This document shows, one piece after another, positions 2,238 to 42,102 of a stretch of 44,406 nucleotides of DNA (within the stretch, counting starts at the first letter, position 1; each line of letters opens with the position of its first letter). A program made the position numbers and the translations under genes. The DNA comes from Neelides folsomi (Eukaryota > Arthropoda > Collembola > Neelipleona > Neelidae). The stretch covers positions 1 to 44,406 of the forward strand of contig JAQGBZ010000468.1 in the NCBI GenBank assembly GCA_034687125.1, read 5' to 3'. Under the pieces are notes generated by a model. The model had not been told where the DNA came from. It was given only the letters and a program-made list of their open reading frames with translations, and did not search any database.

Positions 2238-2374
2238 GTAATAACCATTACTTAACTCGAAGTTCATATACTTTTACATATTTTTATTTAAGTTAATAAA
2301 CTCAAAAATCAATGATATTAGGTATACACATATTAATACACAAATGTACGTAATACACAAATGTACATTTACCT

Positions 2375-6432: not shown

Positions 6433-6440
6433 ATTATTAG

Positions 6441-7315: not shown

Positions 7316-7399
7316 GTTATTAGTGTATAACTAGTATAAATATTTTGTTTAATTATAATTTGAAATGATTATTTTTTAATTAAATTAATTATTGACTAG

Positions 7400-9481: not shown

Positions 9482-9597
9482 TTACTGGGTTAAACTGTGC
9501 CATTCTCACCGCCAAATTCAAATTTCAAATAATGAATCTTTTTTCCATTTAGTCATTAATTAATAATTAATTAATTAGGTATTTAATAACCATTAAA

Positions 9598-11275: not shown

Positions 11276-11574
11276 AACAAGGAATTGAATTTTTACTAAA
11301 ATTACGCATTTACGCAGTTATTGTATTTCAAGGTTTGCATTACAGATTATCCATTTCAAATTGATTGCTTTAGTTTTTTGAACTCATAATGAAAATAAAA
11401 TCTGTAATGTGACTTTATTTGAAAATAATTTAAAATTTTTCATAAATTAAAAATATTAAAATTCAAATCCTCTATTTAAAATTTTAGTGAGTTTTAAATT
11501 TTTTATTGTATTAATATTTAGACTGAATTGAAAATATCCGAGTGAAGCAGCTTTAATTCAACAATAATCATATC

Positions 11575-12459
11575 ATGGATTCCGACGAATATTCCGACGC
11601 TAAAGACACAAAAGAGCTCGAGGATTCTGAGGATTCATTTGAAGAAGTGGACGAAGAAAACGAAGAATTGTCAAGTTTCCACGATGCAAAGCTCCTCGAA
11701 TTCGATCGAAAAATCATCGAAGAATTGGAAGAATTGCGAACAAGTGTTGGTTTATCTCATTACAAGTGCAATTTGGGGAAATCGGTTGGCGTTGGAATAG
11801 GCGGTGTTGGAACTGCAGGATCTCTTATTGGTCTTATGGGGGCTCCCGCATCGGGAGGAATTTCACTTTTTTTGACCTTCGGCGGTGTGGCGTCTGCCGT
11901 CGGCGGAACTCTCACTTCAATCACAACTTCGATAATTAGGAAAAAATCCATGAATGGATTTTGGGCCCAATTGGATGAAATAATTTGCAAAAGAAATGAG
12001 TTCATTGCAAATCATTGCAAATCCTCCGAAGTTGAAATTGTCGGAGATGAACACGGAATTTTCGTCACGTTAAGACGAGCCTTCCGGGTTGGGAACGCTT
12101 TAAGACAAGTTCAAGCCAATGCTTTAAAAGCTGCGAAAGCCACCCGGGTAATTACGAAAATTGTAGCTGAAGCTCAGGCAACTCCTGCGGGTCGAGTCGC
12201 AATGGCCAAAATGATCAAATATGAATTGAAAGCTTTGAATGAATTGCCCAAACTCATTGGATTTCCTCTTGGGGCAAAAGCTCTTAAAATGAGCTTTGTT
12301 GGACTTGGGCTGATCGGAACGGCTTATGAGTTCATTGACACGTGGAGGAGTTGGACAAATCCACCGGACATTTTAAATGTCATTGGCCAATTTGTTCATG
12401 AATTGGAATCGCAAGTTGAGTCAATGGATGTTGAAAATGATTATGTTTTAGTTATTTAA
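11575..12459 (+). CDS. Apolipoprotein-L-like protein
   Basis: A single-exon frame of 294 residues with an upstream region rich in stops. Residues 1-55 are very acidic. Residues 71-121 form a long glycine/alanine-rich hydrophobic hairpin (VGVGIGGVGTAGSLIGLMGA and onward), the hallmark of the ApoL membrane-inserting domain. A central amphipathic helical stretch follows (about 165-215, ALRQVQANALKAAKATR), then a second hydrophobic stretch near residues 232-255. Vertebrate ApoL proteins bind lipid and can form membrane channels, and ApoL-like proteins also occur in invertebrates. There is no signal peptide, so an intracellular location is likely. The lack of introns, unlike its neighbours, may mean retroposition or an old transfer. 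Family assignment rests on the domain pattern, not on a search. Confidence 0.75.
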   Translation: MDSDEYSDAKDTKELEDSEDSFEEVDEENEELSSFHDAKLLEFDRKIIEELEELRTSVGLSHYKCNLGKSVGVGIGGVGTAGSLIGLMGAPASGGISLFLTFGGVASAVGGTLTSITTSIIRKKSMNGFWAQLDEIICKRNEFIANHCKSSEVEIVGDEHGIFVTLRRAFRVGNALRQVQANALKAAKATRVITKIVAEAQATPAGRVAMAKMIKYELKALNELPKLIGFPLGAKALKMSFVGLGLIGTAYEFIDTWRSWTNPPDILNVIGQFVHELESQVESMDVENDYVLVI

Positions 12460-22988: not shown

Positions 22989-25088
22989 TCAAATTGGCGG
23001 TAGAAACTTCATATTCTTTATCACGTAATCGTAGGAATGGCAATTGAGCAAAATTTGATTTCTTTTGCTCTTTTTGAGTTCGACCGTTTTTTTAAACACG
23101 TCTGGATTGTTGTAGCATTTCACAAGTGTCAAATTTATCAATAGGAATATACATCCTATCCCACGAAATTGCGGCGAATCTTTCATCATATTAAGAAATC
23201 CAAGAATGTAAGGAAGATTTTCGAAACCATGTCGAATCAAATCGTTCACAACCAAAAGACCCTTTTCGCAATTTTCAGGCAAAAGAATTTCCTGGACAGA
23301 ATTGAAATGTTTTCCCCATAGAACTTTAGGAATATAATTCCTTGCATTTCCTTCTTGGGTCAAATCCTCATAAATGTCAATGACCGTCCCAAAAGTAATG
23401 ACAAAATTTCCAAAATGGTTTGCACATTTTTCAAGTTCTGCATCGCTGAATTCAATTATTTTTTTGCTCAAAACTTTTCCACATTTAACCAAAGAATTTA
23501 TAATTTCTCCTGCGATGTAATGACAATACAAGTCAAAGTCTTCGAATGTCAGAACTTCTTTAAATAAGAATTCGATCATTCCCTCAGTCATCATTTTAAT
23601 TTGATCGTAAATTATTGTTTGAATTTCACCCGGGAATGTTGAATAAACATTGAGAACTTTGTTAAAATCTTGTAATAATTCAGCTTCGTAGTTGCTATGG
23701 TCCCGCCAACCCAATTTCATTGTTGTGCCGATATCAGACGGGAAATCGGATTTCAAATCTTTTAAAACCTGCGGGAAGACTTTTAAATATTCGGCGCGAG
23801 TTTGAAGCGGAATTGAAGTGTCGTCCTCAATTGTGTCAGCCGCTCGATTAATCAAATAATCAACCACGATAATTAAATATAATTCAGAATCAAGTTTCAA
23901 GTTAAATTTTTTAGGTGAAAATTTATTAAAATAACGTGCGATTTGGTTATAACTTTTCATGCAAAATTCAACGTCTTCCAGAAAGTTGGCAAATGAGGAA
24001 TTCAAATGAAGAGCTTTGAGGGCAAAAGCTGTTGATAGATTTTGATTTCCAATGTAAATTTTCCCTGAGGAATTAAATGAAGCTTTTGGAAAAGAACCGT
24101 TTGAATTTTGCATTTGAATTAATTTCTCAGCTTCTGTTTGGATTAAGGTTTTGAATTCATTGTCGCACAATCTACCAAAACTGACCGAACAAGCGGCAAT
24201 AATTCTCATTGAAAGTTCTATTGGGGAATCATTTTGACCAAGACGAGCTTTAAGAGAATTGATAACAAATTTTTGTACCGATTTTTTAAATTTTAATGGG
24301 AAAACGCCCAAATTTTCCGATAAGAAATAAACGAGGGAATTCTGGGAATTGTGTGCCAAATCTTCAATTATTTCACAATTTTCCGAATTCTCCGCTTTGA
24401 CATGATTTAAATTGTCGATAAACTTTTCGCTTAAAATTTCATATTCCTCCGTCAGTTCCAATTTTTGAGTTAATGACAGCAAAACCGTGAGGAGTTTGAG
24501 AGATTCGGTGGAATTTTTAACAAGGCCATTTGAAAACATCAGAAGGATCAATTTAACAAATGGAACCGCGGCCTCTTTTTCGATTTTCTTGGTTTCAATT
24601 AAAATTGAAATCCATTCAATCGTGTCTGAAACAAATAAGATAAATTTAAACTATTTTATTAAACTCCTTAAATTAAAATGATTTAAGTTTAAGAAATTTA
24701 ATTTAAATTAAAGAAATTAAAATAATAGTAATATAATTAAATTGACCTTACCAATAATATTACAGGTCAATTTTGAGTTCACGAAAGAGATTGGAAGTCC
24801 ATCAGAAAAAAGAGTTGCAAAATGACCATTAAGGAAGTCCATGTTCAAATCCGAATCAATTGATTTCACCAAATGATACATCCGAATGGAAGTGAAGATT
24901 TCCAATGCCGAGTCTTCTGAAGTCTTTAAAAATTCCCCATCGGAAATTTTAGTTTGAAATCCAGTGTCCGAATTCAAAGTCGACTTGAGATAAGAAATTC
25001 CATTTTCAACACAAACCAAATCGTTCCCTTCGGGTGTGGAAGTTTCATTAAGCGAATTTTGGTCAAAGGCGTTCTTAAGAGAATCCAT
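22989..25088 (-). CDS. Terpene-cyclase-like/squalene-synthase-like fusion protein, copy 1
   Basis: Exon 1 (24752-25088) and exon 2 (22989-24625) join in phase 1 to 657 residues; squalene synthases alone are about 400. Residues ~330-657 are squalene/phytoene-synthase-like: first Asp motif RAADTIEDD (Asp at 376), YCHYIAG (~476), second Asp motif DIYED (529-533), then YIPKVLWGKH, LPENCEKGLLVVNDLIRHGF and CYNNPDVFKK. Such enzymes couple two allylic diphosphates head to head. Residues 1-325 are helical, with a QW-like QNSNGSF (285-291) and LSTAFALKALHL, as in alpha/alpha-barrel terpene cyclases; no DxDD acid motif is present. Against copy 2 and known squalene synthases it has lost the Asn and Arg before the second motif (FGTVIDIYED versus KVNIIRDIKED), and SRSF is ARYF. 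No membrane anchor is seen. It is divergent from the synthase at 26209. Confidence 0.92.
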
Positions 25089-26208
25089 CGTCTTAAAGTT
25101 AAACCTAATTTTTAAATCGTTAATTTATGAATGAATGATATTTTAACATTAAAAATCTCAAATTAAAAATTATACGAAAACCTTTATCTTTGTTTAAAGA
25201 AGAATTGGATGTCTGAATTGAAGACGAAATAAAATGAATATAAGATGTTGAAGTTCATATATACTGCAAAATAATTTTTTCCTTGATCTATTATACAATG
25301 TGTTAAAGTTAAAATATTATGGCTCTAATTAAGCATACTTTTATATCTTTAATGTGCAATAAACTTATTTTATTATTGATAAAATTCAACATAAGATAAT
25401 AAAATTCTCACATCAAATTTTTTATGTAACCAAAAAAAACATTGTGTTAAATTTCTACATATTCTCACATACAGTATTGTAATAGTAATAAGGTAATTAC
25501 ATACATCGTGCTTATATAACATGTAACATATGAACATTTCTATTAGTGTTTTCTATCTCGACTGAATAAACAAATTACAATATTTTATTACAATATACGA
25601 ACAAAAGATTTATTTAAATATATTAACCCACATATAAGATTTTAGTTAACCTAATAGTATAAAGAACATTTGATAAAATAGATATTTACTACTTAAATAT
25701 TACAAATATAAAAAAAATTCCATTAATTTTAATTTATCTGATTTTCCAACACGTGTTCTCACATAATTAATTTAATAGCATTTGAAAGTAAAGACAAAAT
25801 TCTTTCCTAAGAGTTATATAATTTATGATTGTGAAAATATTTGGATTTGATGAGGAATTAGGATTGCTGTACAAGTACAAGTTTAATAATAAAATTATTG
25901 AACTTAATTGAGGAAACTCAATTTTTAATTGGGATTCTTAATTTAATAATTGAACATTTACGTATAGAATATCCAAAGTAAATAAATTTCCCATCCGAAG
26001 TCCTTCGAACTAAACACAATAAAAATTTAATGAGGTTTTAAAAGTAAATAGGTAAGAAATTGACGTTAAAGAGAAGTATAAAAGAAAATACATTGAGTAA
26101 TTTGGAGTTTCATTTCTTACTTTTAAAAGTTCACTGTTCAGTTTCACAAATTAAAATTATCAAATCACAATTTAATATTTACAAGTACATTATATTCAAA
26201 GATAGATA
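25089..26208. promoter_or_regulatory. Bidirectional promoter region, terpene pair 1
   Basis: 1.1 kb between two divergent start codons. On the plus strand a TATAAAAG box at 26077-26084 lies 125 bp before the synthase ATG. On the minus strand a TATATA word at 25258-25263 lies about 170 bp before the fusion-protein ATG. The equivalent spacer in pair 2 has a similar length. No operator-like motif was recognised. Confidence 0.5.
26077..26084 (+). promoter_or_regulatory. TATA box of isoprenyl diphosphate synthase 1
   Basis: TATAAAAG is a full-consensus TATA box at a plausible distance (about 125 bp) from the ATG at 26209. This would give a 5' UTR near 100 bases. Confidence 0.5.
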
Positions 26209-27694
26209 ATGCAGTTCATTTGTACTAAAATGAATTTATTAAAAATCCAACAAGAACGAGAAAAATTCAACGCCGAATTCCCCAATATTGTTCGAGATCT
26301 CATTGAGTCTTCCGAATTTCAAGATATGGAAATTACAAATAAATGGCTTGAAAAAGTTTTAACTTACAATGTGAAAAACGGGAAAAAGAACAGGTGAGGA
26401 AATTATTACTCAATTTACAATAATACAATTAAATACAATTGAAAAACTTAATAAACAATTAACATAATTGTTATAATAATTAGGGCTTTTACTTTTATCT
26501 ACACTTTCAACTCTTTGTCGGATATTTTATCAGAAGAAGAAAAACGAATTTCTTATGTTCTTGGTTGGTGTGTAGAAATTGTAAGTTTAATTAACCAAAC
26601 CAATCGGATTGACAATATTAAATTAAATAAGATTATAATTAAGATTAATAATTAACAATAAGTAGATTTAAATTAATTTTTAATTGTAATTGGCATTGTA
26701 ATTAACAGCTTCAAGCTGCTGCATTAATTGCAGATGACATCATGGACAATTCTGAAACTCGTAGGGGAAATCTTTGTTGGTACAAAGTTGATAATTTGAA
26801 TGCCGTTGCCTTCAATGACGCTTTGTTTTTGGAAAGCTGTGCTTATTTCCTTCTTAAAAAACATCTCAAAGGGAAAGAAAACTATGAAACGGTATTTGAT
26901 TTATTTCACGAAATAAGTCATAAGACACTTTATGGGCAAAATCTAGACACACTGACAGCCAAAAATAAGGATTTCGAAAGGTGCATTAAAATTTAAATTA
27001 CTTATTAAATTATACATTAAATTAAATATTTATTAAATTACTCTGGGTCAAAATAATATTTTAATTTCTTTGAGTTATACGATGGAGCTTTACACATCGA
27101 TTGTTAAATATAAGACAAGTTATTATTCCTTCTATTTGCCGATTTTTCTCGCGTTTGCAATGGTAAAAATTCAAACTTTTACATATTCTCAAAATACAGA
27201 TTTGATCAAGTACATAATAATAATAATGCTGATATTAATTATAATTAATCATTAATTATAATTGTTCGTAATTTTTAAAGACGGGAATGAAAGATTTGGA
27301 AATTTTGAAAAAAACCGCTAATCTGACATTGAAAATCGGCCTCCTTTTCCAAATCCAAGACGATTATTTGGATTGCTTTGGGAATGTTGAAACTTCAGGG
27401 AAAATCGGATCGGACATTGGAGATGGAAAATGCACGTGGCTTTTCGTGACTGCTTACGAAAACGGAAACGAAGAAGAGAAAAAGATTTTAATCCAAAATT
27501 ATGGAAGTAAAGATGAAATAAAAATCTCAAACGTTAAAAAACTTTACGAGAAACTTCAAATTCCAAAATTGTTTTCCAATTATGAGGACGATGCTTTTAA
27601 AAATCTTTTCAATCAAATCGATTACCTCGGTGACAAATTCCCCAAAGAGATCTTTTACGAAATGCTTCATAAAATATATCGACGCGAAAAATGA
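26209..27694 (+). CDS. Isoprenyl diphosphate synthase (FPPS-type fold, predicted longer product), copy 1
   Basis: Five exons (26209-26393, 26484-26580, 26709-26980, 27075-27162, 27281-27694) give 351 residues, the usual length of animal farnesyl diphosphate synthase. The first Asp-rich motif is intact, IADDIMDNSETRRG (Asp 103-107), and so is the second, QDDYLDCFG (Asp 241-245). The conserved IVKYKTSYYSFYLPIFLA block lies between them, and the C-terminus ends KIYRREK. These enzymes add isopentenyl diphosphate units to an allylic primer using magnesium held by the Asp motifs. Residues 98 and 99, five and four places before the first Asp, are Ala-Ala; animal FPPS has Phe-Phe there, which stops growth at C15. 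Small residues predict a longer product such as GGPP. A second in-frame Met seven codons on (MNLLKIQ) could be the true start, as in copy 2. Confidence 0.95.
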
Positions 27695-27970
27695 ACAATT
27701 ATTATAATAATATAATTAAACATGTCAATTTATAATTGTCAATTACAATAATTATACCAAAGTTAATTAATTAATTTATCACTTAAATTGCCTTAATTCA
27801 ATTAAGTTAATTGTAACTATTCGTGGAGTGAAACGAAAAATAAAAGGATTTCAGATAACAGAATTAATAAAAGATTTATTCCAAAGTTAATCCAATCTTC
27901 AATTTAATTTTAGGTTCTTTAATTCACCCGTTTACTTTGTAATTAAAATTTAATTATGAATTGCCATTCC

Positions 27971-28645
27971 TTAACTTTCAGAGGAAAAGAAGTTGATCGG
28001 GGTTTCATTCTTTGCAGTTTTCATAATTAAATTTCCGACTTGGACGACTTCGTTCTCTTGAAAAAAGATCCGTTTGAGTTGTTGGAATCGTTGCACCAAA
28101 AACTTCCGTTCCTCGGCCAGTTGTCTTTGAAAGCTCTCGAGCCTTTTTTGCTTCTCTTCAAGTCTCTGCAAATCATAATTAAAATTATTAACTACCCAAA
28201 TGGTTAACACTAGAATTAAATTTCGAGTTTGACTAACTTTAACTTAATTTAATTAAATTGAAGATTTGAACCTTAATAAAAATCGTTGCTCGAATGAGGA
28301 CACTCAACATTGGAAGTTTCGGACCAATATGCTTCTTTGGCACAAGTTTCCTCAAATCACAAAGCAAATTTTTTTGTTCATCTCGTCGCTTCTTTTCATT
28401 CATTCGGTGATGGGGATTCGCATTCCTGCAATGTATAATCCTTTCAAATGAACATTGAAAGGAAAGAATCATTCTTCACTAATTATTTGCAATTATTATT
28501 ATACAGAATCCTTCTATTATTTAACTTATATAATATTAATAGATTAATAGCCTATATTGTATCTCTATTATTATTATTATTATTATTACCTGTATTGAAG
28601 TTGAGGTTGAAGCTGAATCAAATTGCTCATCGTGCAACGTTCCAT
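27971..28645 (-). CDS. Small MYC/MAX-type bHLH-zipper transcription factor
   Basis: Three minus-strand exons (28590-28645, 28272-28425, 27971-28165) give 134 residues. The basic region is NPHHRMNEKKRRDEQK, with the His, Glu and Arg spaced H-x3-E-x3-R as in factors that bind CACGTG. Helix 1 and loop read LLCDLRKLVPKKHIGPKL, helix 2 MLSVLIRATIFIK, and a zipper follows directly (RLEEKQKRLESFQRQL, then ERKFLVQRFQQL). Length and plan resemble MAX or a MAX partner rather than full-length MYC, with no long activation domain. An in-frame stop precedes the ATG, fixing the start. The family predicts nuclear dimerisation with a partner bHLHZ protein. Its exact orthology cannot be decided here. Confidence 0.85.
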
Positions 28646-29682
28646 TGGAAATCTTTTCTTTATCACGAGAGGTTTTTAATGACACTGTTGATCGATTAAC
28701 AATAGTTACTGGTCTAATTTAATTAATGATATAAATCAATGACCTCAATGCAATTAAACTTAATTGATGATTTACACTCACAAGATTATTAAAATGGCTT
28801 TTATCGCTAACTAAAACCGAAGTGACCGATGGCAGGAATTCAACGATGACACGGACACAAAGACAAGAACGAAACGAAGTGTCACTATGATACTGACACT
28901 ACTAAGGTGACACACAACTCACACCAGACACACAGACGAATCACGACCACGAGGAAACGACCACAAGGTGAAGGTGAAAGTGAATGGCTAGAATTTGAAA
29001 TTACTGGAAATATCCCGAAGAATTTTCTAAGTGGCAGCTAATAGAAACAAAGAATACAAAGTCTCATTTAACCCGATCTATATGCCAAATGTCGAAATAT
29101 AAATATTAAATATGTAAGAAATAGGATATTTATGTTAGTATTTTAGTATCATAAAATGTATGTTTTAACCTGTGAAATTCAATCCTTAAAATAATATTGA
29201 ATTATTGAAAAAGTTAAAGGTCAAATGATCATGATTCACGAGCGAGAGGTTAAAAAACACAATATTTTTTAATCGTCAGAAAAATTTCAACTAAGATACC
29301 ATGGAGAAATTCCGCATTGAAAGCGAGGAAAGGAATACCCGACAGAATAATAAATTGTAATTTTGAACATCAATTTTTATTCAATTTAATAATTTCTTTA
29401 ATTATAAAGATTACTTGCATATTTTATTTTTAAGCCTTCTTCCTAAAGTCTAAAAAGATTCAACAAACCTTAAAAGCAGATCTTGAAAACTGACTTTAAA
29501 AATCACGAATTCAGACAGTGAAAGATTTAAAATGTAATACTAATGTTTATTTAAATATCGTTCGACAGATGTTAATAATGTTATTATATTTTGTATATAT
29601 AAGTATATATAAGAGAGAAGTTAAAATAAACTAAATCTGTTTATATTAACGTTAAAAGTGGATTTATGGCTATTTAAGAAAT
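28646..29682. other. Intergenic, 5' flank of bHLHZ gene
   Basis: No further exon is convincing. 28850-28990 is unusually rich in gac/cac words (cacacagacgaatcacgacc) and may be untranslated leader of the bHLHZ gene. Confidence 0.45.
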
Positions 29683-29945
29683 GGTCGGGTCTCCTGTAGT
29701 TCGGGTAATCGGGTCTCTTGTAGGTTGGGTAGCTTAAATGGTCGAGTAGTCGGGTAGTGTGATGGTCTGCTAGCTTGTAGGTCGGGAGTCTGCTAGGCGG
29801 CTTACTTGTAGGTCAGATGGACGGCTCACTTATGTGAGATAGGGCATATAATGTTAAAGGGGAAAAGGTCTGCTAACTTGTAGGTCACCCGACCTACCCA
29901 GGCGGCTTACTTGTAAGTCAGGAGTCTCCTAACTTGTATTTGTAA
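29683..29945. repeat. Degenerate cttgtaggtcggg repeat block
   Basis: About ten imperfect copies of words such as cttgtaggtc, tcgggtagt and ggcggcttac. The composition (cgggt/acccg) resembles the arms of the palindromic element at 1078-3187, so this may be a decayed relative. Confidence 0.6.
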
Positions 29946-30121
29946 CTTGGATTGTTTAGGATATGTTTCAATGGCTTGGAAACTTGATCTATCTTTGATT
30001 TGCCGGGGATTTCAAACCATTTCCAATAAAATTAGTAAAGAAGAACTCTAAAAGAGAGACATTTTTTTAAAAATAAAAGAATCAGAAGTTGATTTTGCTA
30101 TGTGGTTTTATTTGATTCTAG

Positions 30122-30245
30122 GGCTAACAAAGAGAAATCTGATTATTTCGGTTACGAACAAATTAGCCCTGTAACAAGATACAAAAAAATTAAATATGAC
30201 CGAAAGGGATATTTTCCATATTGTTACAAGGAAATTGAAGATTAA
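30122..30245 (+). other. Possible orphan 3' terminal exon
   Basis: After a good acceptor (gattctag) one frame is open to a stop at 30243-30245 and encodes a protein-like sequence (ANKEKSDYFGYEQISP, then KYDRKGYFPYCYKEIED). A start-bearing frame at 29971 does not splice to it in phase. No family was recognised. It could be the tail of a lost gene. Confidence 0.25.
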
Positions 30246-30381
30246 TTAAAAATTGATAATTCCAAACTAAGCCTAATTGAACTAAATTGATCATTTTTTT
30301 ATTTTTATTTTTTAAATGTCATTTAGTTTAAAAATATAATGTATACTAGTTGTTTAAAAAGAATATAAAAGAATAAAAAAA

Positions 30382-32700
30382 TCAATTTTGAACTTTACAA
30401 TAACAGAATTTCTTTAAATAAGTGTCGTTAATACACCAAGATTGATTTTTATATGAATTGGTTCTGCTTATTGTTTCTTTACCTCCTAAAACTTTCAAGG
30501 CTCCATTTTTGTTTTCCACCGTGGCTTCAAACGTTCCATTCCCTGGAAATGTTTTCACCCCAATACGAATTTCTTCAATCGCATTTTGATCTTCGATTTC
30601 ATCCTTTGGAAATAAAAAAAGTTCAACTCCGTCCAAAATACTTGAAAGTTTCAGAATTTCACATTGCGGGAATTTAACCAACATTAAATTTAAAGAGGAA
30701 ACTACAACAGACGCTGAAGATTTGGCTAAAGAACTATTTTTATGAATTGTAGTTACTGGATGGCAAATGCACCTATTTGTAATTAACAATTAATTTATAT
30801 TTAATTAACTTATTAGCATTTAATATTGTTAAATATGATTTTTAAAATTAAAATGACATTAAAATTAATGTTAACAAAATAAAAACATACCAATGACTTG
30901 AAATATCCGCTTCAATACAATCTCTATTCCGATGTACCGGAAGAAAAAGACTAATCGATCGATCGCGTTTTGTAGGAAGTCTCTTTTGAACATTTTCATT
31001 TTCAATATTTGCCATATTTGCGAAATCCAAAAGAGTTGCGTGGATGTCAAAATGCGTTATGAGTCGATTTTCATTTTCTTTCATAAATTCCAAGCCTTTG
31101 GAATATTTCAACCGAAATGATTCTGGAAACACAAATGATAAAAACGGCATTCTTTCTTCAATTTTCCCTTGGCGGGTATTTCGAATTGAGCCATATCTCA
31201 TCCCATGGTCAGACATAAGAACCAAAATTGTATTATTTAAATACCCGTCGTCGTTTAACCATTTGAGTGTATTGAGAAGTTTGTAATCTCCAAAATGACC
31301 ATAATTCAACTCATCATGAGTCAAATAAGTTTCCCATATGAATTGGAAATATCTTTCATTTGGGTGATTTTTAAATTCAAATGCCGTTTTTGTAAAGTAA
31401 TCCATTAAAATGTCAAAGGTCAATTGCGGACCGTAGCAATATCCAACATCAGTATTGTGAACTTTTTTGTTCATGGCGACAGCCAAAGGACGGAAATAAA
31501 AATCAGTAGGAGGATCGAAAAATCCTTTGTGGAGATAATTCATAATAGCGTTTTTTGAATCTTCCGCGAATGAGGTGAGAAATCCTTTTGAAGCAAATTC
31601 ATTCCAGATAAAAGGACAATCGTCAAAGTATGAAGATTCCGATGGCCAACAAAAAGTCTTGAGGTCATTCACATGTTTACCTGTTAAAGCTGGGACCACA
31701 TTTGGAAATGTTCCTATAAAATTATAAAATAATTTAATTTATTAACTATATATTTTTTAAATTGTATATACATTCACATTAATTTTATTTTAATTACCGT
31801 CTCCTAATTTGTTTAATCCATTGAAAAAATAAGCAGAGAGATTCATTTTTAAATAATTGTAACTTTTTTCGAAACTGCGTTGGAAATTCATATTGGAAAC
31901 AGAATCAAGACCAAAAATGGCAACGTTGTATTTCCCATCCATTGAGATTTCATTCGCTCGCGGTTTTTTTAATTTTAAATTGTCAATGTTCACTGTTGAA
32001 AAATAGTCAACGACATTTAAAGTGCCGTTGTTGCAGAAAACGGCAATAAATTCATATTCGATTTTCGTTTCCTTTTTGTAAATCATGTGACACATTTCGG
32101 AATATCTTTAAAATTATCATTTAAATTCACTTTAAAGTAAAACATTAATGAAAATTCGAGAAAGTTATTATAATTATCTTATTTAAGAATCTTACATTGA
32201 TTCAACTTCAGTTTTTCTTGTAACAACTTTGTAACAACAATATTTATATCCCAACTTTTTAGGATTTCTCACACTCACAAGTGTTCCATCTATTGTCATT
32301 GAAAAAATGATTTTTCCCCATTCGCATTCCAATGTGGCTTTCCTTTGGTTATATTGGAGGATATTTGGATCAAATGGGTTTAAATGAGGAATAGCGCAAA
32401 CATTGGCTATAAAATAATATATTATAAAAAACTTAATCTAAAATTCTTATAAAATTATAATAATTAACTATATATTATGTTAAGCATAATATGAAATATA
32501 TAACGTATGAAATGTAATATATACTGCTAATCTTTACTTGTGTTTCTTATTTCATTTTTAATGTATTCTCCAATTTCAACGTTATCAGCCTTCAAAATTG
32601 ATTCGTTTGGTGAATAAAGGTTTTTGCGGATTGATTCAAAACCAACAATAAGTAATATTAGAATTATCAAAAAGTTTATCTTTTCAACTTTAAATGGCAT
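30382..32700 (-). CDS. DUF229 sulfatase-like extracellular/ER protein
   Basis: Five minus-strand exons (32538-32700, 32196-32406, 31798-32105, 30891-31713, 30382-30772) give 631 residues. Residues 8-20 form a signal anchor. The family start CAIPHLNPFDPNI is followed by IFGLDSVSNMNFQRSF, which carries the Asp-Ser of the alkaline-phosphatase/sulfatase fold. Then come the metal-site blocks LMSDHGMRYG and HFDIHATLLDF, and a Cys-rich C-terminal beta domain (WCICHP, CYCKVQN). DUF229 proteins are widespread in nematodes and arthropods. Their substrates are mostly unknown, and a secreted hydrolase or transferase acting on phospho- or sulfo-groups is expected. The first motif, metal ligands and final Cys pairs all look intact, so it is probably functional. 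Confidence 0.88.
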
Positions 32701-33628
32701 TATTCTATGAAAGATTCTAATTCAAAAAGTTATGTATTTGATTTATCAAATCAATTAAAACCTACAAGCTTGAGAAGACGTTATACATAGATTACATATA
32801 TAATGTATTAATAATTACTGCAAATATACCCATTGTTAGAAATCTTAATATGAAAATATTATTTCATTTTTATATTCACAATGTAAAATATTTACGTACT
32901 GGTACATTACAATATATTTATAATTTATAATACCAAATTTCTAATTATAATAATGAATATTTTATGAGTAGGATGAAATTATTTTGAATTAACTTTCTTA
33001 TAACAAAATACTTACATGTTAAAAACAACAATTCATAACTACCTATGTGATTAGAAATCAAAAACTGTATATTAATGAAACGATGGAAACTTTTATAATT
33101 TAAAATATTATGAGGTGGTAAAAACATTCAAAGATTAATAATATTATTATTTTGTATTTTCATTATACTATCAGACTAATCTAAATATTATAATTTTACT
33201 TCTATATCCTTATAATAAATAACACTAAATTGTCATTTGATATTGGTCAATTTATCCGACTTCCATTTATGAATAAATACGATAATTACAATAATTAGTC
33301 AGTAAATTCTTTAAATGGCTTTATTATCACCCTTATAAAGGGAGAATTCTTTGTATAAAATCGCTATCCATGCTTTACACGTATAAATATGAGGATTTCC
33401 AACTATGATAAGGGTAACCATACTACATAGGACACCGATGCTAATGGGTATTTGTCTTTGGTTTTCCTCTGGACATTTCATTTCCCAAATTTACCAACAA
33501 AGACGTTGTATTTGAAATTATAGGGAAGGAGTTAAAGATATGCACACTATATGTGAAATCTGTGGTTTGCAAATGGACAAAGTGAAAGGAAATATCTAAG
33601 TCGGTCTAAGGAATAAAACATGAAAAAT
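32701..33628. other. Intergenic, no recognised feature
   Basis: AT-rich 5' flank of the DUF229 gene and 3' flank of the secreted coiled-coil gene. A 37-codon frame near 33403-33517 was seen and not accepted. Confidence 0.5.
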
Positions 33629-35334
33629 TTATTGTAAAAAATGAATTTGAAATGGATTTGTTCGTTGGAGTTGACGCAGTTGACCCATTTGTGAACATTG
33701 AACTAATTTTACATTTAGATTTATATTTTCAGTTTGAATGTATCCTAATTGGGATTTCAAACTGTCTGAGTTTTGAATACAATCAGATGTGGTTCTTTCA
33801 TGTCTTCGCAATTCTTCGTTCTTATCTTCCAATTTATCAAACAGATCGTGAATCTAATTTCATAAATTAAGAATTTTTTAAAAACATTTGTGTCTAATAA
33901 ATTCATATAAAAATAAATCAATATTTAATAAAATTGCAATACTCTTTGAGAACGATAATCTGACGTATCTTTACAGCTCTCCAATTCCTTTTTAATTTTA
34001 TTCCACTCGATCTCTTTTATTTCCACAGTTGAATTTAACTGTTTGAGCTGTATAAGAAATTTCAATTGGCTGAGATTCGGAGTCTCTGCAAAACCATGCT
34101 AGAACCATGGGGCACCATGTTTCCCTATTCTTATATGTTAGGCTAGGTTAAGTTAGATGGCGCTAATCACCATTCCTATTTAAATGCACGCTGGAACCAT
34201 GGAACATGGTTTTGCGGAGATTCCGAATGTTAGCCTTTTAATTATGTATTTATTAACAGAATTCATATTTTAAATCAATAAAAGTCAATCTAAAAATCTT
34301 GATTGATTATAAAATGTAAAATTATAAAATGATTTATTAATATTAATTAATTCAATTAAATATTGTATAATGACAGAATTTTTCTTAAATTTTTATATTT
34401 TTTCAATTACCTGTTCATTTTTAACATCAATTGTCTCAGTATTTTTCAACTCCGCTTCAAGTTTATTTATTGTTTCTTCTTTTTCTTTCAGTGAAGATTT
34501 CGTTTTTTCAACTTCCTAAAAGTATCGAATAAAAATATTATTGTACTTCACATAAAAGTAAAAATGAAAAAGTACCAACATTTTATGATCAATATCAACT
34601 ATATTACAAAAATCATATTTTAATAAAATTTTAATTTTAAATATTCCCACATATTTACCTCATTTAAATTTTCAATTATTAGAGTTTTATTTAAAATATC
34701 GCTTTCAAATACGCCAATTTGCGTTTGAAGATTTGTTATCTCATTGACACTCTTTGAACATTTTTCTTCATTGGAATTTACTTTTGTTTCAAACAATTTG
34801 AGTTTTTCTTCGGTTAATTTCAGGGTTTTAGTAAGAAGATCCACTTTATCCTTTTATCATTTTTTATAGTCAGGATTAAAAAAAATATTTTAAATAATGT
34901 CCAAATTATGTATGTACTTATAATAATTGTTTAATAATTTAATAAGTATTCTTTACACAATCACCTCATTTGAATGGCAACAGGCTGCAGAATGTCTGGA
35001 AAGGGATCCTTTCGGACAATAACACGAACATGCTCGTCCATTCATATCTCTCCCAGACGCCGCAATTGTTTTGTTTGGAAAAGCATTCTCGCACCAAGTT
35101 TGAGACTCCACATCTCCTTCAATGACTTTTGAATTTAAAGTTTAATACATTTACTTATATTTAATTAAATGCTTAAAATTGAGTCAAGACAATGCATAAT
35201 ATATATATATATATATATAACTATTTGTACATAAGTAGTTATGTATGTGGAATATTTTAAATCATCAAATGCTTACATGGAAGAAGAGAAAGGAAGACGG
35301 TGAAGATAAAAAGAGTCAACGAACCCAAGTTCAT
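33629..35334 (-). CDS. Secreted coiled-coil protein with Cys-rich head
   Basis: Six minus-strand exons (35277-35334, 34965-35125, 34659-34850, 34411-34515, 33943-34047, 33629-33853) give 281 residues. The four middle exons are multiples of three or join in phase 0, so exons could be gained or lost without breaking frame. Residues 1-20 are a signal peptide (MNLGSLTLFIFTVFLSLLP). A small Cys module follows (TWCENAF, ACSCYCPKGS, AACCHSNE). The rest is heptad-repeat coiled coil, for example LTKTLKLTEEKLKLFE and KEKEETINKLEAELKN. It has no transmembrane helix, so a secreted oligomer is likely. No family was recognised. Confidence 0.75.
34068..34235. mobile_element. MITE, family A copy 1 (intronic)
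   Basis: 168 bp with about 29-bp imperfect terminal inverted repeats: ggctgagattcggagtctct at the left and gagattccgaatgttagcc at the right. It lies within an intron of the secreted coiled-coil gene. A near-identical relative is at 41445-41621. Confidence 0.85.
35196..35220. repeat. (AT)n microsatellite
   Basis: A run of about eleven to twelve AT units in the first intron of the secreted coiled-coil gene. Confidence 0.9.
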
Positions 35335-36203
35335 TTTACCAACTTCCACTTTGTGAAACTCAGGCGAGTTGAATAGAAAGAATATTCTCAAAGACAATGG
35401 AAGATCTTTTTATATACCAACTCTTCCAATAATACGAGTCATAGATTTTCCCATAAATGGTATTTGTACAAGGTTCAAGTTCAACGCTTTTGAATATTAA
35501 AGAGATTAAAAATAAAGAAGCCATTGTGAATCATAAGAAAAGAAATGGCGCAAATCATATTAATATTTGATATACCGCTACATATTTTGGGTATGTCAAA
35601 TGGTCATATCATATGTTCATAATGGTGAATTAATCTGCTATATGTTATATCTTTATATCATATTTAATCATGTTTAATTGAGATGAGATTGAATCTCACA
35701 TTTTTATTTTTTTAATAAAGGGTTTGTTGAGATATCCAAATGTTTCCAAATATAACTTTTAAGTAACGGCAAATATTAATAAAACAATAAAATAATTTTT
35801 TTTGTTCACATTGTATTTTATTAATCATTTAAATCTAATTTTGATATTATAACGAGGCTTTTATATTACTATATAACATATAAGCAAACAATGTGTTGGA
35901 ATTTTAAAATAGAATATTAACTGTTAATAAATAAAAGTTCAAAGGTTCAAAATCAAAAAGGGTTCAAAATGAAAAATTTCATACTATACATAAAAGTCAA
36001 CCACATGATAAAACCTGAAATTATTATCTACTCTATTCAAACTCATTGTTTTATTGTTTTGTTAGATTTTCTGATTTTCTTCATTTCTTACTTTCCTCTC
36101 AAACTCAATTGTTTTAATATTGAAAGACCCCTCACTTATTATTAGCTAATATTGTTGAACTTTGTTTTATTCTGTAAGAATAAATTGGCATTAAGTTTGA
36201 ATC
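35335..36203. promoter_or_regulatory. Divergent promoter region
   Basis: Separates the secreted coiled-coil gene (-) from the small gene at 36204 (+). On the minus strand a TATAAAAAGA word at about 35407-35416 lies 75-80 bp before the ATG at 35334. No other feature. Confidence 0.45.
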
Positions 36204-36926
36204 ATGTCTATCACTGAAACGGAGGAAGGTAATTTCGAATGTTACTTTTTGTTTATCAGTGATGAAATTTTAAAATTACATTTACTTGATTTTCTTTATT
36301 AAACTTACAATTTCATTTCATTATATATTGAACCAATTTGGTTAGTAAAATACAATTACTCTCTTTAGGTGTGAAAATGTCTGAAGCGCAAGGTCAAGGC
36401 CAACCTTCAGAGAAGGCTCATTTGGAAGCTCTCGACATCCAGCAAGTTTCACTTCGATTGATTCGGGTCTTTCACCAAAACTGCGGCTACTTCTCTTCTT
36501 CATTGAGGATTAAATCAATTGAAAAGAATGTGGATCCGGCTTCTTGGGCCGCATTGAGTCCTACCCAACTGCCCATGCCGACCTCAATTCAATACAACGA
36601 AGTGAAAATCGAATATGTGGAGGAAAAATGGACGGATTTGAACATATTCGACCCATCTATTGAATTTAAGAATGAAAAAGAGCGTCAAGATCTGTTGTCA
36701 TTAATTGAGTCTCTTCAATTCCCAAGTTGAATTGGCCCCCGCTTTCTTCGACCTCATCAAAATTCTTCGTTCCAAATTCAGCCATACTCATTTCACGGCT
36801 CAGATCCTCAGGGGAGGAAAATTGGAAAGAATTGAAGTTCCCTTTGATAAATTGGAATTGAGGAATTTGATCTCCCCAAAGAACACCATTTGTACACTCA
36901 AGTCGGAGAAAGATCCGTTCCTTTGA
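36204..36926 (+). pseudogene. Unrecognised gene with a frameshift near 36722
   Basis: Exon 1 (36204-36228, MSITETEE) joins in phase 1 to exon 2 (from 36369). The frame is open to a stop at 36728-36730, for about 128 residues. Immediately at that stop another frame continues with protein-like sequence (ELAPAFFDLIKILRSK to KSEKDPFL) ending at 36926. Losing a single C from the ttccca run at about 36721-36725 would put both parts in one frame. A sequencing or assembly indel, a real null allele, or two unrelated frames are all possible; no intron signals fit. The protein has no signal peptide and no recognised family. Confidence 0.5.
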
Positions 36927-37258
36927 ACGATGAGAAATATCGGACTAATTTCTAAACTATATGCAATCATACACTATTAGTACCCTAAATCAATCATTTC
37001 AATATATAAAATTTTAGTAAGAATGTTTTTACTTCATGTTGACTATATGCTATAATATGCATGTAAGATAAATATTATGAAAAATCGACTATAGCAACCG
37101 GACATAATCAAATAGTTAATTTAACTTTTGACTGTGTTTATTTAATCGAACAAAGATAAAGTTTTTTATTCATACTATTTAAAACTATTTGCTATTTGTA
37201 ACCCTATAACATAAATATTAATATTATTACTATAATACATAATATGTATGTAATATTA
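36927..37258. other. Convergent 3' spacer
   Basis: Lies between the small frameshifted gene and the 3' end of the second squalene-synthase-like gene. AT-rich, nothing recognised. Confidence 0.5.
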
Positions 37259-39365
37259 TTACAAAATATGAATATATGACTTTTCAATTTTGGGCAATTC
37301 TTTTAAATTCTCCCTTACAAAATCCATGGAGTTGCATTCAATGAATATTTTTGCCATGACGTCACTTTTCAATTTAATTGCCTTTTTGAAAATGTTAGGA
37401 TTGTTGTAGCACTCAATTAATGTTAAATTCCCAAGAAGTAAAGGAATTGCAGCTCCACGAAAAACATTTAAATCCCACGTTGCAAGCCCAATTGTTTCAA
37501 TGCTTAAAGGAATGAGCTCAAAAGCATCCCGAATCAATTCATTCACAATTTCGAGTCCTTTTGCACAATTTTCTGGCAAAAGAATTTCATCAATTGATTT
37601 AAAATATTTTCCCCATACGCATTTGGGATAAAAAATCCTTGGATTTGCATCTTGTGTCAAATCCTCCTTAATGTCCCGAATGATATTCACTTTCTGCAAA
37701 AACTTCCCAAGATGAATTCCCTTCATGGAAAGTTCCTCTTCTGGGACCTTTGGAATATTTTCGCAATTTGATGCAATTCTCATAATTTTTCCTAAAGCGG
37801 ATCCAACCGTTCCTGCAACATAATAACAATACAAATTGTAATCCTCCATTGTTTCAACATCTTTGTAAAGGAAATTTTCCATTCCTTGGGTCATTATTTG
37901 GATTTGGTTAGAAATGATCTGTTGGATTTGAAGTGAAAATGTTGAATAAACGTTAAGAACTTTGTCAAATTGTTGCAAGAGTTCGCATTCGGCATTTGAA
38001 TCTCCGCGCCATTCCAATTTTAAAGATGAGCCGATGTTGGAGGGAAAATTTGATTTCAAATTTACTAAAACCTGCGGGAAGGATTTGAGCAATTTTGATC
38101 TTGTTTCTAATGGAATTGAAGTGTCGTCTTCAATTGTGTCAGCAGCTCGGTCAATTAAATAAAATATAATTACAATTAGACGAAGTTCGGGGTTTAGACA
38201 AGAAGCAATCAAATTAAAACTCCGCGAAACTTTTGAAAAATTCTTCAAGCAAAAATCAACATCTTGGTCAAATTTAATTTTCCAGGAATTCAAATGCAGA
38301 GCTCTGGATGCAAAAGCTGTTGACAAACTTTTGCTCCCAAAATAATTCTCATTTGATAAATAAAAAACTGCCTTTGGCCAAGATCCATTCAAATTCTGCA
38401 TATTTGACAATTTTTCGATTTCTTCCACCATTAATGCTTTAAATTCATCGTCGCAGGTTTCAGTGTAATTGATTTTAATAGCCGAAATTATCCTCATGGA
38501 CATTTCAATCGGACAATTACTTTTTCTTATACAAACCTTTAAAACATTTGTAATGTAAGTTTGAACGGTTTGATGAACGTTGTTTGGAAAAATGTTTAAA
38601 TTTTCTGTCAAGAAATAAATTAACGTTTCTTTAGGAACATGAATTAAACTCTCGGAACTTTTCTGTTCTTTATATTCTTCTTGCTGAATAACATTCAAAT
38701 TTTTAATGAATAATTCAATTAAAAAATCAAAATCCGATTTGAGTTCCAATTTATAAGTTAAGTTCAACAATACAGAAAGGCAAATCAAACTTTGAGAACT
38801 AAAACGAATATCATTGGCGTACGTCAAAATAATTAATTTGACAAAAGGAAGCGCTGCTGTTTTATCAATTTTACATGTTTCGAATAAAATTGAGATGCAT
38901 TCGGCAGTATCTACATAATAAAATACAATATATGATTTAAACTAAAATTATTTGTACTTATGTACTATGTAAAATAAAGTATTAATTAATCAGATTATAA
39001 ATTTTATTAAACGTGATTAGTAAATAAATACCTGTAATATTCGAAAATTGTATCGGAATTTTTATATTAACAAAAGATGTTGGAATTCCTTCATTAAATA
39101 CTTTGGCTAGGAAATCCAAAAGTAAATTTGTTTTTATTTCCGAATTGTTTGATTTGGTCAATTGATAAATTCGAATCGTAGTAAAAATTTCCAAAGGCGC
39201 TGCAAATGAATTATTCAAAATTTTATCCAGGGAGGATTTAGATTGAACTCCACTTTCAGAATTTAGAGATGAATTTAAATACGCGATTGCTTTCTCAATT
39301 CCAGTTAATTGACTACATAAACCAAATTGAAATTTCCTAACTGTTAAATCTTCCATTGAATTCAT
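37259..39365 (-). CDS. Terpene-cyclase-like/squalene-synthase-like fusion protein, copy 2
   Basis: Exon 1 (39032-39365) and exon 2 (37259-38910) join in phase 1 to 661 residues, with the intron at the same place as in copy 1. This copy keeps more canonical squalene-synthase features: SRSF (340-343), RAADTIEDD (Asp at 369), YCYYVAG (472-478), the block KVNIIRDIKED with Asn 520, Arg 523 and Asp 524-528, FYPKCVWGKY, and AAIPLLLGNLTLIECYNN. The N-terminal half has a full QW-type motif QNLNGSW (283-289) and LSTAFASRALHL, typical of alpha/alpha-barrel cyclases. No DxDD was found, so that domain may be structural or use another chemistry. No membrane helix ends the chain, unlike many squalene synthases. 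The start is the ATG at 39365, which aligns with copy 1. It is divergent from the synthase at 40353. Confidence 0.93.
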
Positions 39366-40352
39366 TGTCACTATATATTTTAAATACAATTATTATTTAT
39401 ATATAAATAATATATAAAGATAGGTTATAATTTAGTAAATTTTTAATTTTTTGAAACTTAATATAAATTAATAAGAGTAATGAACGAAACTAGTTTCCCA
39501 CAGCACAGACGACAGAAAGCAAATGAGAAATAAAATTTGAACTTTTGTATGTATATGTATGAGAAATATTCTTAATTGCCCGTAATCTTTATGATTTAAA
39601 AGATAATCTCTGAATGAATTTTGATATCAAATGTTTGTAAACATAAAATTTCCGTTTCATGTAGTTTATTACGCCATTGGGGTTTTCCGTTCGAATTGAT
39701 TTTGAGATAAATTGTTTCTTACATACTCTGTACATGTATCATGTAAATGCTCAGATCTGTTAGTTGGATTTCTTAATTGAGATAAAAATATAAATTATAC
39801 ATTAATTAATTCAATTGCGTAATTTGAACCTTTAAATATAACCTGAGACTTTTCTTGTTTTCATGTAAAAATTACAATTTAAGATTTAACGATAAATATA
39901 TTAAAAACCCATTTATACATTTGATAGTAAAATGCGTGTGATCGTATTTTGACCTCTTCCTTTCTTGTGTTTTTACACAAATGTGAAGATGTCGAAATTG
40001 GAAAAATCCCTCAATTAAGTAAACATTTAAAACATGTATTATTTTATCACCTTGTTAATCCACCCTGTGTAGTCCGTTTCCATTTAAGGAAACTATACGA
40101 CATGGATTCGACTTGGCAAATTAGTTTTACTCCACATTTGGAATACAATAAGTGAATAATTAAATGGTCCCCTTTACTTAAATAAAGTTTAAACAAACTT
40201 TAAAAATACTTTATTTAATAGTTCAAACGTATTTAACTTTTCAAGTACTAAAATGATCAATTTACTGGGAAAATATAATCTGAATCAATTATAAATTATT
40301 TTACTTGGAGAATATATTTTATCAAATTTTGAATTCTGAGCAAACTAAAGTA
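39366..40352. promoter_or_regulatory. Bidirectional promoter region, terpene pair 2
   Basis: About 1 kb between divergent start codons, matching the 1.1-kb spacer of pair 1. By eye the two spacers share no long identical block, so either only short elements are kept or the duplication is old. A frame at 39949-40155 lacks an ATG start and family features. Confidence 0.45.
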
Positions 40353-42102
40353 ATGAATTTTCTTAATATCAAAGAACAAAGCGAGAAATTCGATAATGAA
40401 TTTCAAAACATTATTAAAGACCTTGTTGAATCTCCAGAATTGAGAGATATGCAAATGACAAATAAATGGCTCGAAAGAGCTCTCCACTACAATGTGAAAA
40501 ACGGGAAAAAGAACAGGTGAGAAATTCGTCAATTAATATATTAAATTGTATCAATTATTATTTATAATTATATTACATGATGTTATGAGGGATATTTAAA
40601 GTAAAAAAAGACATGTTTATTAATTTTCAGAGCTATGATTTTCATCTTAGCAAATAACTATTTAAGCACAGAAATAAGCGAAGAGAATTTAAGAATTTCT
40701 TACGTTGTCGGTTGGTGCGTGGAAATAGTAAGAATCTTAAAATTATGCAATACCTACAATGCAATGAAGGCTTTATTCATCAAATTATTATAAACATTTT
40801 TACAAATTAAATATGAAAATATTAATTGTCGAAAATTATATTTTAATTTCAAAAGCTCCAAGCTGCAGCTTTGATCGCCGACGACATCATGGACAATTCT
40901 GAAACTCGTCGGGGAAGACCGTGTTGGTACAAAGTTGAGGATTTAAATGCTGCTGCATTTAACGATGCGTTTCTATTGGAAAGTTGCGTTTATTTCCTTC
41001 TTAAGAAACATCTAAAAGGGAAAGAATATTATCAAGATGTTTTTGAATTATTTCACGATGTCATGCACAAGACGCTCTATGGACAAAGTTTGGATACTTT
41101 AACTTCAAAAGACAAGATTTATTCGAAGTAAGATTTGTTTATATCTTAATCACAATACAGCAATCATTTTATATCAATGCAGCTACATATACATACATAC
41201 ACTCTACCCTATATACAATAAACAACGATCTATACTCATTACAGTAATTTAAAATAAAATCAATTTTTAATTTGATGTTTTTTAAAAAAAACTATACAGG
41301 TATACAATGGAACATTATACTTTGATCGTGAAATATAAAACGAGTTACTATACGTTTTATTTACCAATATTTCTCGCATTTGCAATGGTAATTAAAAAGT
41401 CTTAATCAATTTACCATTTTGTCTGATTTTAGCATTGATTTTATGGCTGAGATTCGGAATCTCTGCAAAACCATGCTAGCACCATGTTTCCCTATTCTTA
41501 TATGTTAGATTAGATTAGATGGCACTATTCACCATTCCTATACAAATGCACGCTGGAACCATGGAACATGGTTTAGAACCATGGAAAAAACATGCTTGGG
41601 CAGAGATTCCGAATGTTAGCCGTTTATATATATAAACGTTAATTGTTTGTAATGTTTTTAACTATTTTTCAAAAAATATTTATTTTAGTTGGGATTGAAA
41701 GACAAAGAGCTATTGAAACAAACAGAAATTCTCACATTGAAAATGGGTCATCTTTTTCAAGTCCAAGATGATTATTTGGATTGTTTTGGTGACGAAGAAA
41801 CAACTGGGAAAATCGGGACGGATATTGCGGATGGGAAATGCTCGTGGCTTTTTGTAACTGCTAAAGAAAAAGCGAACGAAAGTGAAAAGCAAATTTTGCT
41901 CAATAATTATGGCCTCAATGACTCGGTCAAAATAGCAAAAGTGAAAAAGCTGTTTGAAAAACTTGGACTAAAAGATTTTTTCACATCTTTTGAGAAAAAC
42001 TCATATGAAAACATTTTTCATCATATACAAAATCTCGATGAAAAATTTCCAAAAGAAATCTTTTTCGCAATGTTGCACAAAATATATCGAAGGAAAAAAT
42101 AA
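40353..42102 (+). CDS. Isoprenyl diphosphate synthase (FPPS-type fold, predicted longer product), copy 2
   Basis: Five exons (40353-40516, 40631-40727, 40856-41127, 41300-41387, 41689-42102) give 344 residues. Exons 2-5 have exactly the same lengths as in copy 1 (97, 272, 88, 414), so the two are true duplicates. The motifs are IADDIMDNSETRRGRPCWY (Asp 96-100) and QDDYLDCFG (Asp 234-238), with KYKTSYYTFYLPIFLA between. The chain-length residues before the first motif are again Ala-Ala (91-92). Relative to copy 1, exon 2 has the most changes (LANNYLSTEISEENLR). Intron 4 holds a MITE. It is probably co-regulated with the divergent fusion gene. Confidence 0.95.
41445..41621. mobile_element. MITE, family A copy 2 (intronic)
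   Basis: 177 bp starting ggctgagattcggaatctct and ending gagattccgaatgttagcc. It sits inside intron 4 of isoprenyl diphosphate synthase copy 2, is absent from the same intron of copy 1, and has close identity to the element at 34068-34235. Confidence 0.87.

What the first reader, a model, noticed from the sequence alone, without database searches (positions are those of the whole stretch)
22989..42102. Duplicated head-to-head terpene gene pair: a candidate animal terpene biosynthetic cluster
Two units (22989-27694 and 37259-42102) each pair a minus-strand squalene-synthase-like fusion gene with a plus-strand isoprenyl diphosphate synthase across a 1-kb divergent spacer. Synthase exons 2-5 have identical lengths in both units, and the fusion genes share intron position and phase, so the unit was duplicated as a block. 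Consecutive pathway steps in adjacent, presumably co-regulated genes form a true biosynthetic cluster, which is rare in animals. Arthropods are generally sterol auxotrophs lacking squalene synthase, so this is unlikely to be sterol metabolism.
Basis: partly seen in the sequence, partly recalled or inferred. Interest (0 to 1): 0.95.

Follow-up and report, generated by a model that had tools for sequence, protein, structure and literature searches.

The report
Springtail paired terpene-making genes
In a springtail (a tiny soil arthropod) two copies of a gene pair sit head to head: one gene makes terpene chains, the other fuses a ring-closing enzyme part to a chain-joining enzyme part, a combination without a match in the databases searched, which makes the pair a good candidate for the unknown machinery behind springtails' unusual waterproofing terpenes.

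Summary
Two units (22989-27694, 37259-42102) each pair a minus-strand fusion gene with a plus-strand prenyl diphosphate synthase. The host is a springtail by COX1. The fusion joins a class II terpene-cyclase beta domain (TC-beta, drimenol-synthase/AstC type) to a squalene-synthase (SQS) domain inside one exon (model). No such fusion turned up among 5.8 billion proteins (word-based, capped). The synthases are duplicates of an FPPS-like gene of the same genome, with its two chain-length phenylalanines changed to alanine, which predicts products longer than C15. FUS2 keeps the SQS residues that I checked except F288 (Gly) and one basic residue (Ser); FUS1 lost several. Pairwise dN/dS is 0.10 and 0.27. 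Squalene epoxidase and oxidosqualene cyclase were not found (limited sensitivity). Best reading: a module for higher terpenes (C30-C40, perhaps cyclised) like those of springtail cuticles. Products, expression and other springtails are untested.

The parts
22989..24625 (-). FUS1 exon 2: rest of the TC-beta domain and the whole SQS-like domain, stop codon at 22989-22991
24752..25088 (-). FUS1 exon 1 (N-terminal part of the TC-beta domain, start codon at 25088)
25089..26229 (.). divergent spacer of unit 1 (1141 bases between start codons; blastn of unit 1 against unit 2 gave 4 matches, none of them in the spacer)
26230..27694 (+). IDS1: FPPS-derived prenyl diphosphate synthase, 5 exons (26230-26393, 26484-26580, 26709-26980, 27075-27162, 27281-27694)
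26709..26747 (+). IDS1 codons for LQAAALIADDIMD: first Asp-rich motif with Ala-Ala where the C364 FPPS-like gene has Phe-Phe
37259..38910 (-). FUS2 exon 2: rest of the TC-beta domain and the SQS-like domain (F288 to Gly)
39032..39365 (-). FUS2 exon 1 (N-terminal part of the TC-beta domain, start codon at 39365)
39366..40352 (.). divergent spacer of unit 2 (987 bases between start codons)
40353..42102 (+). IDS2: FPPS-derived prenyl diphosphate synthase, 5 exons (40353-40516, 40631-40727, 40856-41127, 41300-41387, 41689-42102)
40856..40894 (+). IDS2 codons for LQAAALIADDIMD (Ala-Ala before DDxxD, as in IDS1)

Best explanation
This is a two-gene springtail module for higher terpenes, present in two diverged copies. 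The synthase gene is a duplicate of an FPPS-like gene of the host. Its chain-length floor has been opened (Phe-Phe to Ala-Ala before the first DDxxD), so it should make a prenyl diphosphate longer than C15, most simply C20 (inferred). The fusion gene encodes a bimodular enzyme. Its C-terminal squalene-synthase-type domain joins two prenyl diphosphates head to head (in FUS2; inferred from kept residues). Its N-terminal class II cyclase beta domain, which ends a few residues before the SQS part begins, protonates and closes rings at a chain end, before or after coupling, or steers the chain (inferred; the catalytic Asp is only tentatively placed). FUS2 is the coupling-competent copy. FUS1 keeps both metal-binding motifs but has lost substrate- and NADPH-site residues and has the longer branch, so it probably does a different reaction. 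The products would be C30-C40 cuticular or defensive terpenes such as the head-to-head [4+4] tetraterpenes (lycopane type) known from some springtails. Shown: gene models, fusion in one open exon, sequence and fold matches, residues, host, constraint. Inferred: substrates, products, co-regulation.
Confidence: 0.5

Rival explanations
1. Plain squalene maker: IDS makes FPP and FUS2 makes squalene as a cuticular lipid or sterol precursor; the cyclase domain is an inert structural add-on.
For: FUS2 keeps most tested SQS residues; squalene and cholesterol are common in springtails; the fusion family holds the only SQS_PSY domains found in this genome besides a gene on C112 that looks like NDUFAF6 (that name is recalled, and only the best candidates are scored).
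Against: FF-to-AA in both synthases while an FPPS-like gene with FF remains elsewhere; F288 to Gly; no squalene epoxidase or OSC found; the TC-beta half is about as constrained as the SQS half; no strongly hydrophobic C-terminal helix as in two fungal SQS.
Confidence: 0.2
2. Diterpene or sesquiterpene cyclase system: the SQS domain no longer couples; the TC-beta and SQS-type domains act in turn as class II and class I cyclases on one prenyl diphosphate, like plant two-domain diterpene synthases.
For: FUS1 keeps both metal-binding motifs but lost S51, S53, Q212, K213, N215, R218 and has a much longer branch (2.04 against 0.29); springtails make cyclic diterpenoids such as curvisetone (PMC11959583, passages).
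Against: FUS2 keeps the coupling residues checked; a class I cyclase in an SQS scaffold would be unusual (recalled).
Confidence: 0.17
3. Decaying relics of a gene family without present function.
For: A third copy on C649 is broken by stops and frameshifts and a fourth on C283 is a fragment at a contig end.
Against: Four intact frames in the window with pairwise dN/dS 0.10 and 0.27 and intact splice signals.
Confidence: 0.07
4. Contamination: the contig is fungal or from another organism.
For: The named SQS relatives listed are mostly fungal; COX1 is on another contig.
Against: IDS1/IDS2 share exon structure with an FPPS-like gene on another contig of the assembly; family copies lie on C649 and C283; neighbours include SYF2, trefoil, ApoL, HLH and DUF229 domains.
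Confidence: 0.03

Closest known systems
HAD-TC-beta drimane synthases (AsDMS drimenol synthase, AstC, AacA)
   Different: No HAD phosphatase; an SQS domain follows where drimenol synthase ends. The DxDT motif is incomplete.
Eukaryotic squalene synthase
   Different: Fused N-terminal cyclase domain, no strongly hydrophobic C-terminal helix, F288 to Gly, below the NCBIfam equivalog cut-off.
Lycopaoctaene synthase (LOS) of Botryococcus braunii race L
   Same: SQS-type enzyme that uses GGPP (PMC4823828, passages), as proposed here for FUS2.
   Different: An alga's enzyme, which also takes FPP; sequences were not compared here.
Arthropod FPPS and its duplicates
   Same: IPP- and metal-binding motifs and the exon structure of the host's FPPS-like gene.
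   Different: Phe-Phe chain-length pair is Ala-Ala; physically paired with a terpene enzyme gene.
HGT-derived chimeric genes of arthropods (PMC13389597)
   Same: That survey reports chimeras of foreign and animal sequence; its cluster 3 occurs in springtails, fungus gnats and mites (passages).
   Different: The passages I saw do not say what cluster 3 encodes; squalene has 0 occurrences in the main text. Its supplement was not read.

Membership tests
Squalene synthase | two DxxED-type metal-binding motifs | tested here: met
   D80, E83, D84 and D219, E222, D223 present in both FUS1 and FUS2
Squalene synthase (FUS2) | S51, S53, Q212, N215, R218 | tested here: met
   all kept in FUS2
Squalene synthase (FUS1) | S51, S53, Q212, N215, R218 | tested here: not met
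   A, Y, I, G, I in FUS1
Squalene synthase | basic residues of the KVKIRKG stretch near the end | tested here: not met
   FUS2 has Ser at frame position 526 (Lys/Arg in 50 of 51) and FUS1 Glu at 523 (Lys in 51 of 51); each keeps the other position
Squalene synthase | F288 | tested here: not met
   Gly in FUS1 and FUS2; Phe in 44 of 51 relatives
Squalene synthase | NCBIfam TIGR01559 equivalog score | tested here: not met
   227 and 148.1 bits, cut-off 286.75
Squalene synthase | C-terminal membrane helix | tested here: not met
   highest 19-residue hydropathy in the last 90 residues 1.52 (FUS1) and 1.46 (FUS2), against 2.89 and 2.61 in two fungal SQS and 1.72 in the unnamed P0010
Class II terpene cyclase beta domain (HAD-TC-beta type) | fold and sequence relationship | tested here: met
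Class II terpene cyclase beta domain (HAD-TC-beta type) | DxDT motif (AstC D271 base, D273 acid) | tested here: inconclusive
   a non-significant alignment puts the acid Asp and Thr on D-T in both copies and Ile at the base
Class II terpene cyclase beta domain (HAD-TC-beta type) | HAD phosphatase partner | tested here: not met
   the partner is SQS
Farnesyl diphosphate synthase | DDxxD motifs and IPP-binding residues (GKKNR, TRRG, KYKTSYY, basic C-terminus) | tested here: met
   same as in the C364 gene in the alignment, apart from the last two residues; the role of each motif is recalled
Farnesyl diphosphate synthase | Phe-Phe at positions 5 and 4 before the first DDxxD | tested here: not met
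   Ala-Ala in IDS1 and IDS2, Phe-Phe in the C364 gene
Insect IDS-type terpene synthase | loss of IPP-binding residues (recalled) | tested here: not met
   they are kept in IDS1 and IDS2
Animal terpene gene cluster | adjacent genes for consecutive steps | tested here: inconclusive
   adjacent head-to-head pair in both units; that the steps are consecutive is inferred
Animal terpene gene cluster | co-expression and a shared product | not testable with these tools
   no RNA or metabolite data

The most novel reading that the evidence does not exclude
A terpene synthase architecture not described before, a class II cyclase beta domain fused to a head-to-head prenyl-coupling (SQS) domain, which together with a longer-chain synthase evolved from the host's FPPS makes cyclised or linear C40 terpenes in an animal: the missing enzymes for springtail tetraterpenes.
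Probability: 0.33. Interest if true: 0.88.

Novelty: new variant of a known kind. Interest (0 to 1): 0.8.

Why it matters
Springtails coat themselves with higher terpenes that are rare in insects, and the study I looked at assigns them to pathways by their chemistry; in the parts I read it names gene matches only for the cholesterol route and a putative squalene-hopene cyclase (PMC11321324, section 9, section 13 part 1 and passages). Here are four concrete, intact candidate genes, a domain combination that I could not find elsewhere, and a built-in comparison: an FPPS-like gene with the usual Phe-Phe in the same genome, a fusion that keeps most coupling residues and a diverged sister. Two or three in vitro assays would settle what they do. 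If confirmed it would be an animal two-gene terpene cluster built from a duplicated native gene and a cyclase domain whose origin is open.

Tried and rejected
Structure from one sequence alone gave mean pLDDT 42.1 and was not used. A tree of SQS domains (44 rows: FUS1, FUS2, human, T. cruzi and 40 of the 120 listed hits, picked by me) did not resolve where the fusion's SQS comes from; the pair sits on a long branch and the program warns of long branches. A search of prokaryote genomes with the TC-beta alignment confirmed no relative (206 stretches matched one of only two peptide patterns, none held by tblastn); this is a weak test. The viral fold library gave 0 matches at E 0.001 or better. 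PF01222 (sterol reductases) was not found, but no control genome rang, so that says nothing. Scanning 7 of the SQS hits with Pfam for a cyclase domain tells little, because Pfam does not see the TC-beta domain in FUS1 and FUS2 either. Identical exon lengths as proof of block duplication: rejected. FUS1 and FUS2 as nearest sisters within the fusion family: not borne out. The synthases as IDS-type terpene synthases: dropped because the IPP-binding motifs are kept. Equating human F288 with CrtM F233, a size-shifting position in directed evolution (PMC4510654, passages), is recalled and was not tested. The paper on canonical terpene synthases in arthropods (PMC11665903) is not held. Print searches for a natural SQS fusion: (4 papers hold one of the phrases, 2 listed, both on engineering) and, on springtail or arthropod terpene genes, (5 of 5 listed; 13 of 13; 15 of 89; 20 of 1,397; 12 of 142); by the titles and starts of abstracts listed, none describes one.
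Full report
What is there. Two units, 22989-27694 and 37259-42102, each hold a minus-strand fusion gene and a plus-strand prenyl diphosphate synthase, with 1141 and 987 bases between the start codons. By my gene models the two synthases (IDS1, IDS2) have five exons of 164, 97, 272, 88 and 414 bases in both units and are 68% identical over 344 residues. The two fusion genes (FUS1, 657 aa; FUS2, 661 aa) have one intron in the same place and phase and are 48% identical over 642 residues. Constraint is visible although synonymous sites are near saturation: pairwise dN/dS 0.10 for the synthases, 0.27 for the fusions, 0.25 for the first 300 aligned codons and 0.28 for the rest. A pairwise value averages both copies, so it does not exclude relaxation in one.

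Who the host is. The assembly (75.1 Mb, 840 contigs) holds a mitochondrial contig. Its COX1, read with the invertebrate mitochondrial code, matches springtails: of the 36 best named hits (P0122-P0157, 79-82% identity) 34 carry a springtail name (partly by my own knowledge of the genera) and two are clusters labelled Metazoa (representative coded FOLCA) and Hexapoda; the first other named hit, P0158, is labelled Coleoptera (77%). The best hit of all (93%) is an unnamed metagenome protein. That the window comes from the same animal is supported by family copies on C649 and C283 and by the FPPS relative on C364, not proved.

How unusual it is. A search of 5.8 billion proteins with the exon 2 frame gave 352 hits at E 0.001 or better (only the 8000 candidates sharing most words were scored); the 120 listed cover 36-62% of the query and the longest is 504 aa. 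The N-terminal half alone gave none at E 0.01 or better among 2733 candidates. These searches need shared 5-residue words, and intron-split genes may be broken in the collection, so relatives can be missed. In the own genome the fusion was found twice intact in the window, once broken on C649, as a fragment on C283, and as a weak TC-beta-like end on C369.

The SQS halves differ. Against 51 relatives, FUS2 keeps S51, R52, S53, F54, R77, both DxxED motifs, the Y171 stretch, Q212, K213, N215, R218 and R228; it departs at F288 (Gly) and at frame position 526 (Ser, where 50 of 51 have Lys or Arg). FUS1 has A, Y, I, T, G and I at S51, S53, Q212, K213, N215 and R218 and Glu at position 523 (Lys in 51 of 51), but keeps both metal-binding motifs. 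At F288 both have Gly, where 44 of 51 relatives have Phe and none Gly. S51, S53, Y171 and Q212 are named as key in PMC4823828 (passages); F288 is placed by the human F288A and F288L mutant chains; the other numbers are counted from these or recalled. In a tree FUS1's end branch is 2.04 and FUS2's 0.29. Loss of F288 could widen the pocket for longer chains or disturb the second half-reaction; the data do not decide.

The cyclase half. AstC needs D271 (base) and D273 (acid) of its DxDT motif (PMC13244436, passages); AsDMS uses D333 (PMC12365925, passages). A non-significant alignment (-0.6 bits) puts the acid Asp and its Thr on D112-T113 of FUS2, at the exon junction, with Ile in place of the base. 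The same Asp is in FUS1, in the broken C649 copy and, read by eye across an intron border, in C283. So protonation is possible but not shown.

The synthase. IDS2 is FPPS-like (best PDB match 8a6u, an isoprenyl diphosphate synthase, E 8.6e-91). The same genome has an FPPS-like gene on C364 with LQAFFLVADDIMD, exon lengths 170, 97, 272, 88, 414, and 61.5% (IDS2) and 54.8% (IDS1) identity. IDS1 and IDS2 read LQAAALIADDIMD. In avian FPPS these two Phe set product length, and F112A/F113S gave products of C20 and above (PMC7887238 and PMC10563020, passages). 8a6u, with Ser-Leu there, is a reminder that smaller residues need not mean long products. The shared exon structure indicates a native duplicate, and shows that equal exon lengths do not prove block duplication. 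A copy on C591 also has Ala-Ala; its two exons compared are 51-63% identical to IDS1, IDS2 and C364 alike.

Duplication history. IDS1 and IDS2 are closer to each other than to the C364 gene. For the fusions the picture is open: FUS1-FUS2 53% and FUS1-C649 52% over the C649 piece; FUS2-C283 56% and FUS1-FUS2 50% over the C283 piece. Duplication of the pair as a block remains the simplest account of the repeated head-to-head order.

Why it may matter. Springtail cuticles carry [4+4] tetraterpenes (lycopane family) and [7]-[9]-terpenes, some with cyclic heads; the cross-species study found SQS and LSS matches only in Folsomia candida among the genomes it checked (PMC11321324, section 9, section 13 part 1 and passages). 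In this genome no squalene epoxidase (control rang in 2 of 14 genomes) and no SHC/OSC domain (controls 2 and 1 of 14) were found; both cyclase models also missed the fusions' TC-beta domains, so divergent cyclases would escape. The other SQS_PSY gene, on C112, looks like the complex I assembly factor NDUFAF6 (name recalled). A module of a longer-chain synthase and a coupling enzyme fits [4+4] chemistry best. Head-to-tail [7]-[9]-terpenes would not need the SQS domain.

Limits. No expression, no product, no second springtail genome. The novelty claim rests and the paper searches listed under Tried and rejected; the supplement of PMC13389597, whose cluster 3 spans springtails, fungus gnats and mites, was not read and could contain this gene.

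Noticed in passing
L031 (G000:C591), about 6600-7730 and 7840-9320, plus strand: Two tandem FPPS-like genes near a contig end. The second also has Ala-Ala before DDVMD; the first has lost the TRRG motif (DDMFDKSKERHFKPCW) and might be an IDS-type terpene synthase.
   Followed up: partly
L033 (G000:C275), about 4850-6380, minus strand: A further FPPS-like gene with Ser-Ser before DDLMD.
   Followed up: partly
L029 (G000:C649), 4955-6998, minus strand: A third TC-beta-SQS fusion copy, broken by several stops and frameshifts; no synthase match in the 10 kb fetched or on C649.
   Followed up: partly
L030 (G000:C283), 8673-9588, plus strand: A fourth fusion copy, a fragment at a contig end; it still has Phe at F288 (IFRFCAVP) and QKVNIIRD.
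   Followed up: partly
L048 (G000:C369), 2181-2369, minus strand: A 62-aa frame that looks like the C-terminal end of a TC-beta domain followed by a stop, without SQS, beside frames that look by eye like P450 fragments (E 0.006).
   Followed up: partly
window 11557-12459, plus: A 300-aa frame with an apolipoprotein L domain (PF05461, 4.2e-12), unexpected to me in an arthropod.
   Followed up: no
window 28239-28475 and 30848-31738, minus: An HLH domain and a DUF229 domain lie between the two units, so the units are not directly tandem.
   Followed up: no
window 5036-5848, plus: Overlapping frames that look by eye like a Tc1/mariner-type transposase; Pfam gave no match for the piece tested (5181-5585).
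   Followed up: no
G000:C742 (L027): COX1 has a 93% identical match in an unnamed metagenome contig (P0121), possibly a nearer relative of this animal than any named one listed.
   Followed up: no
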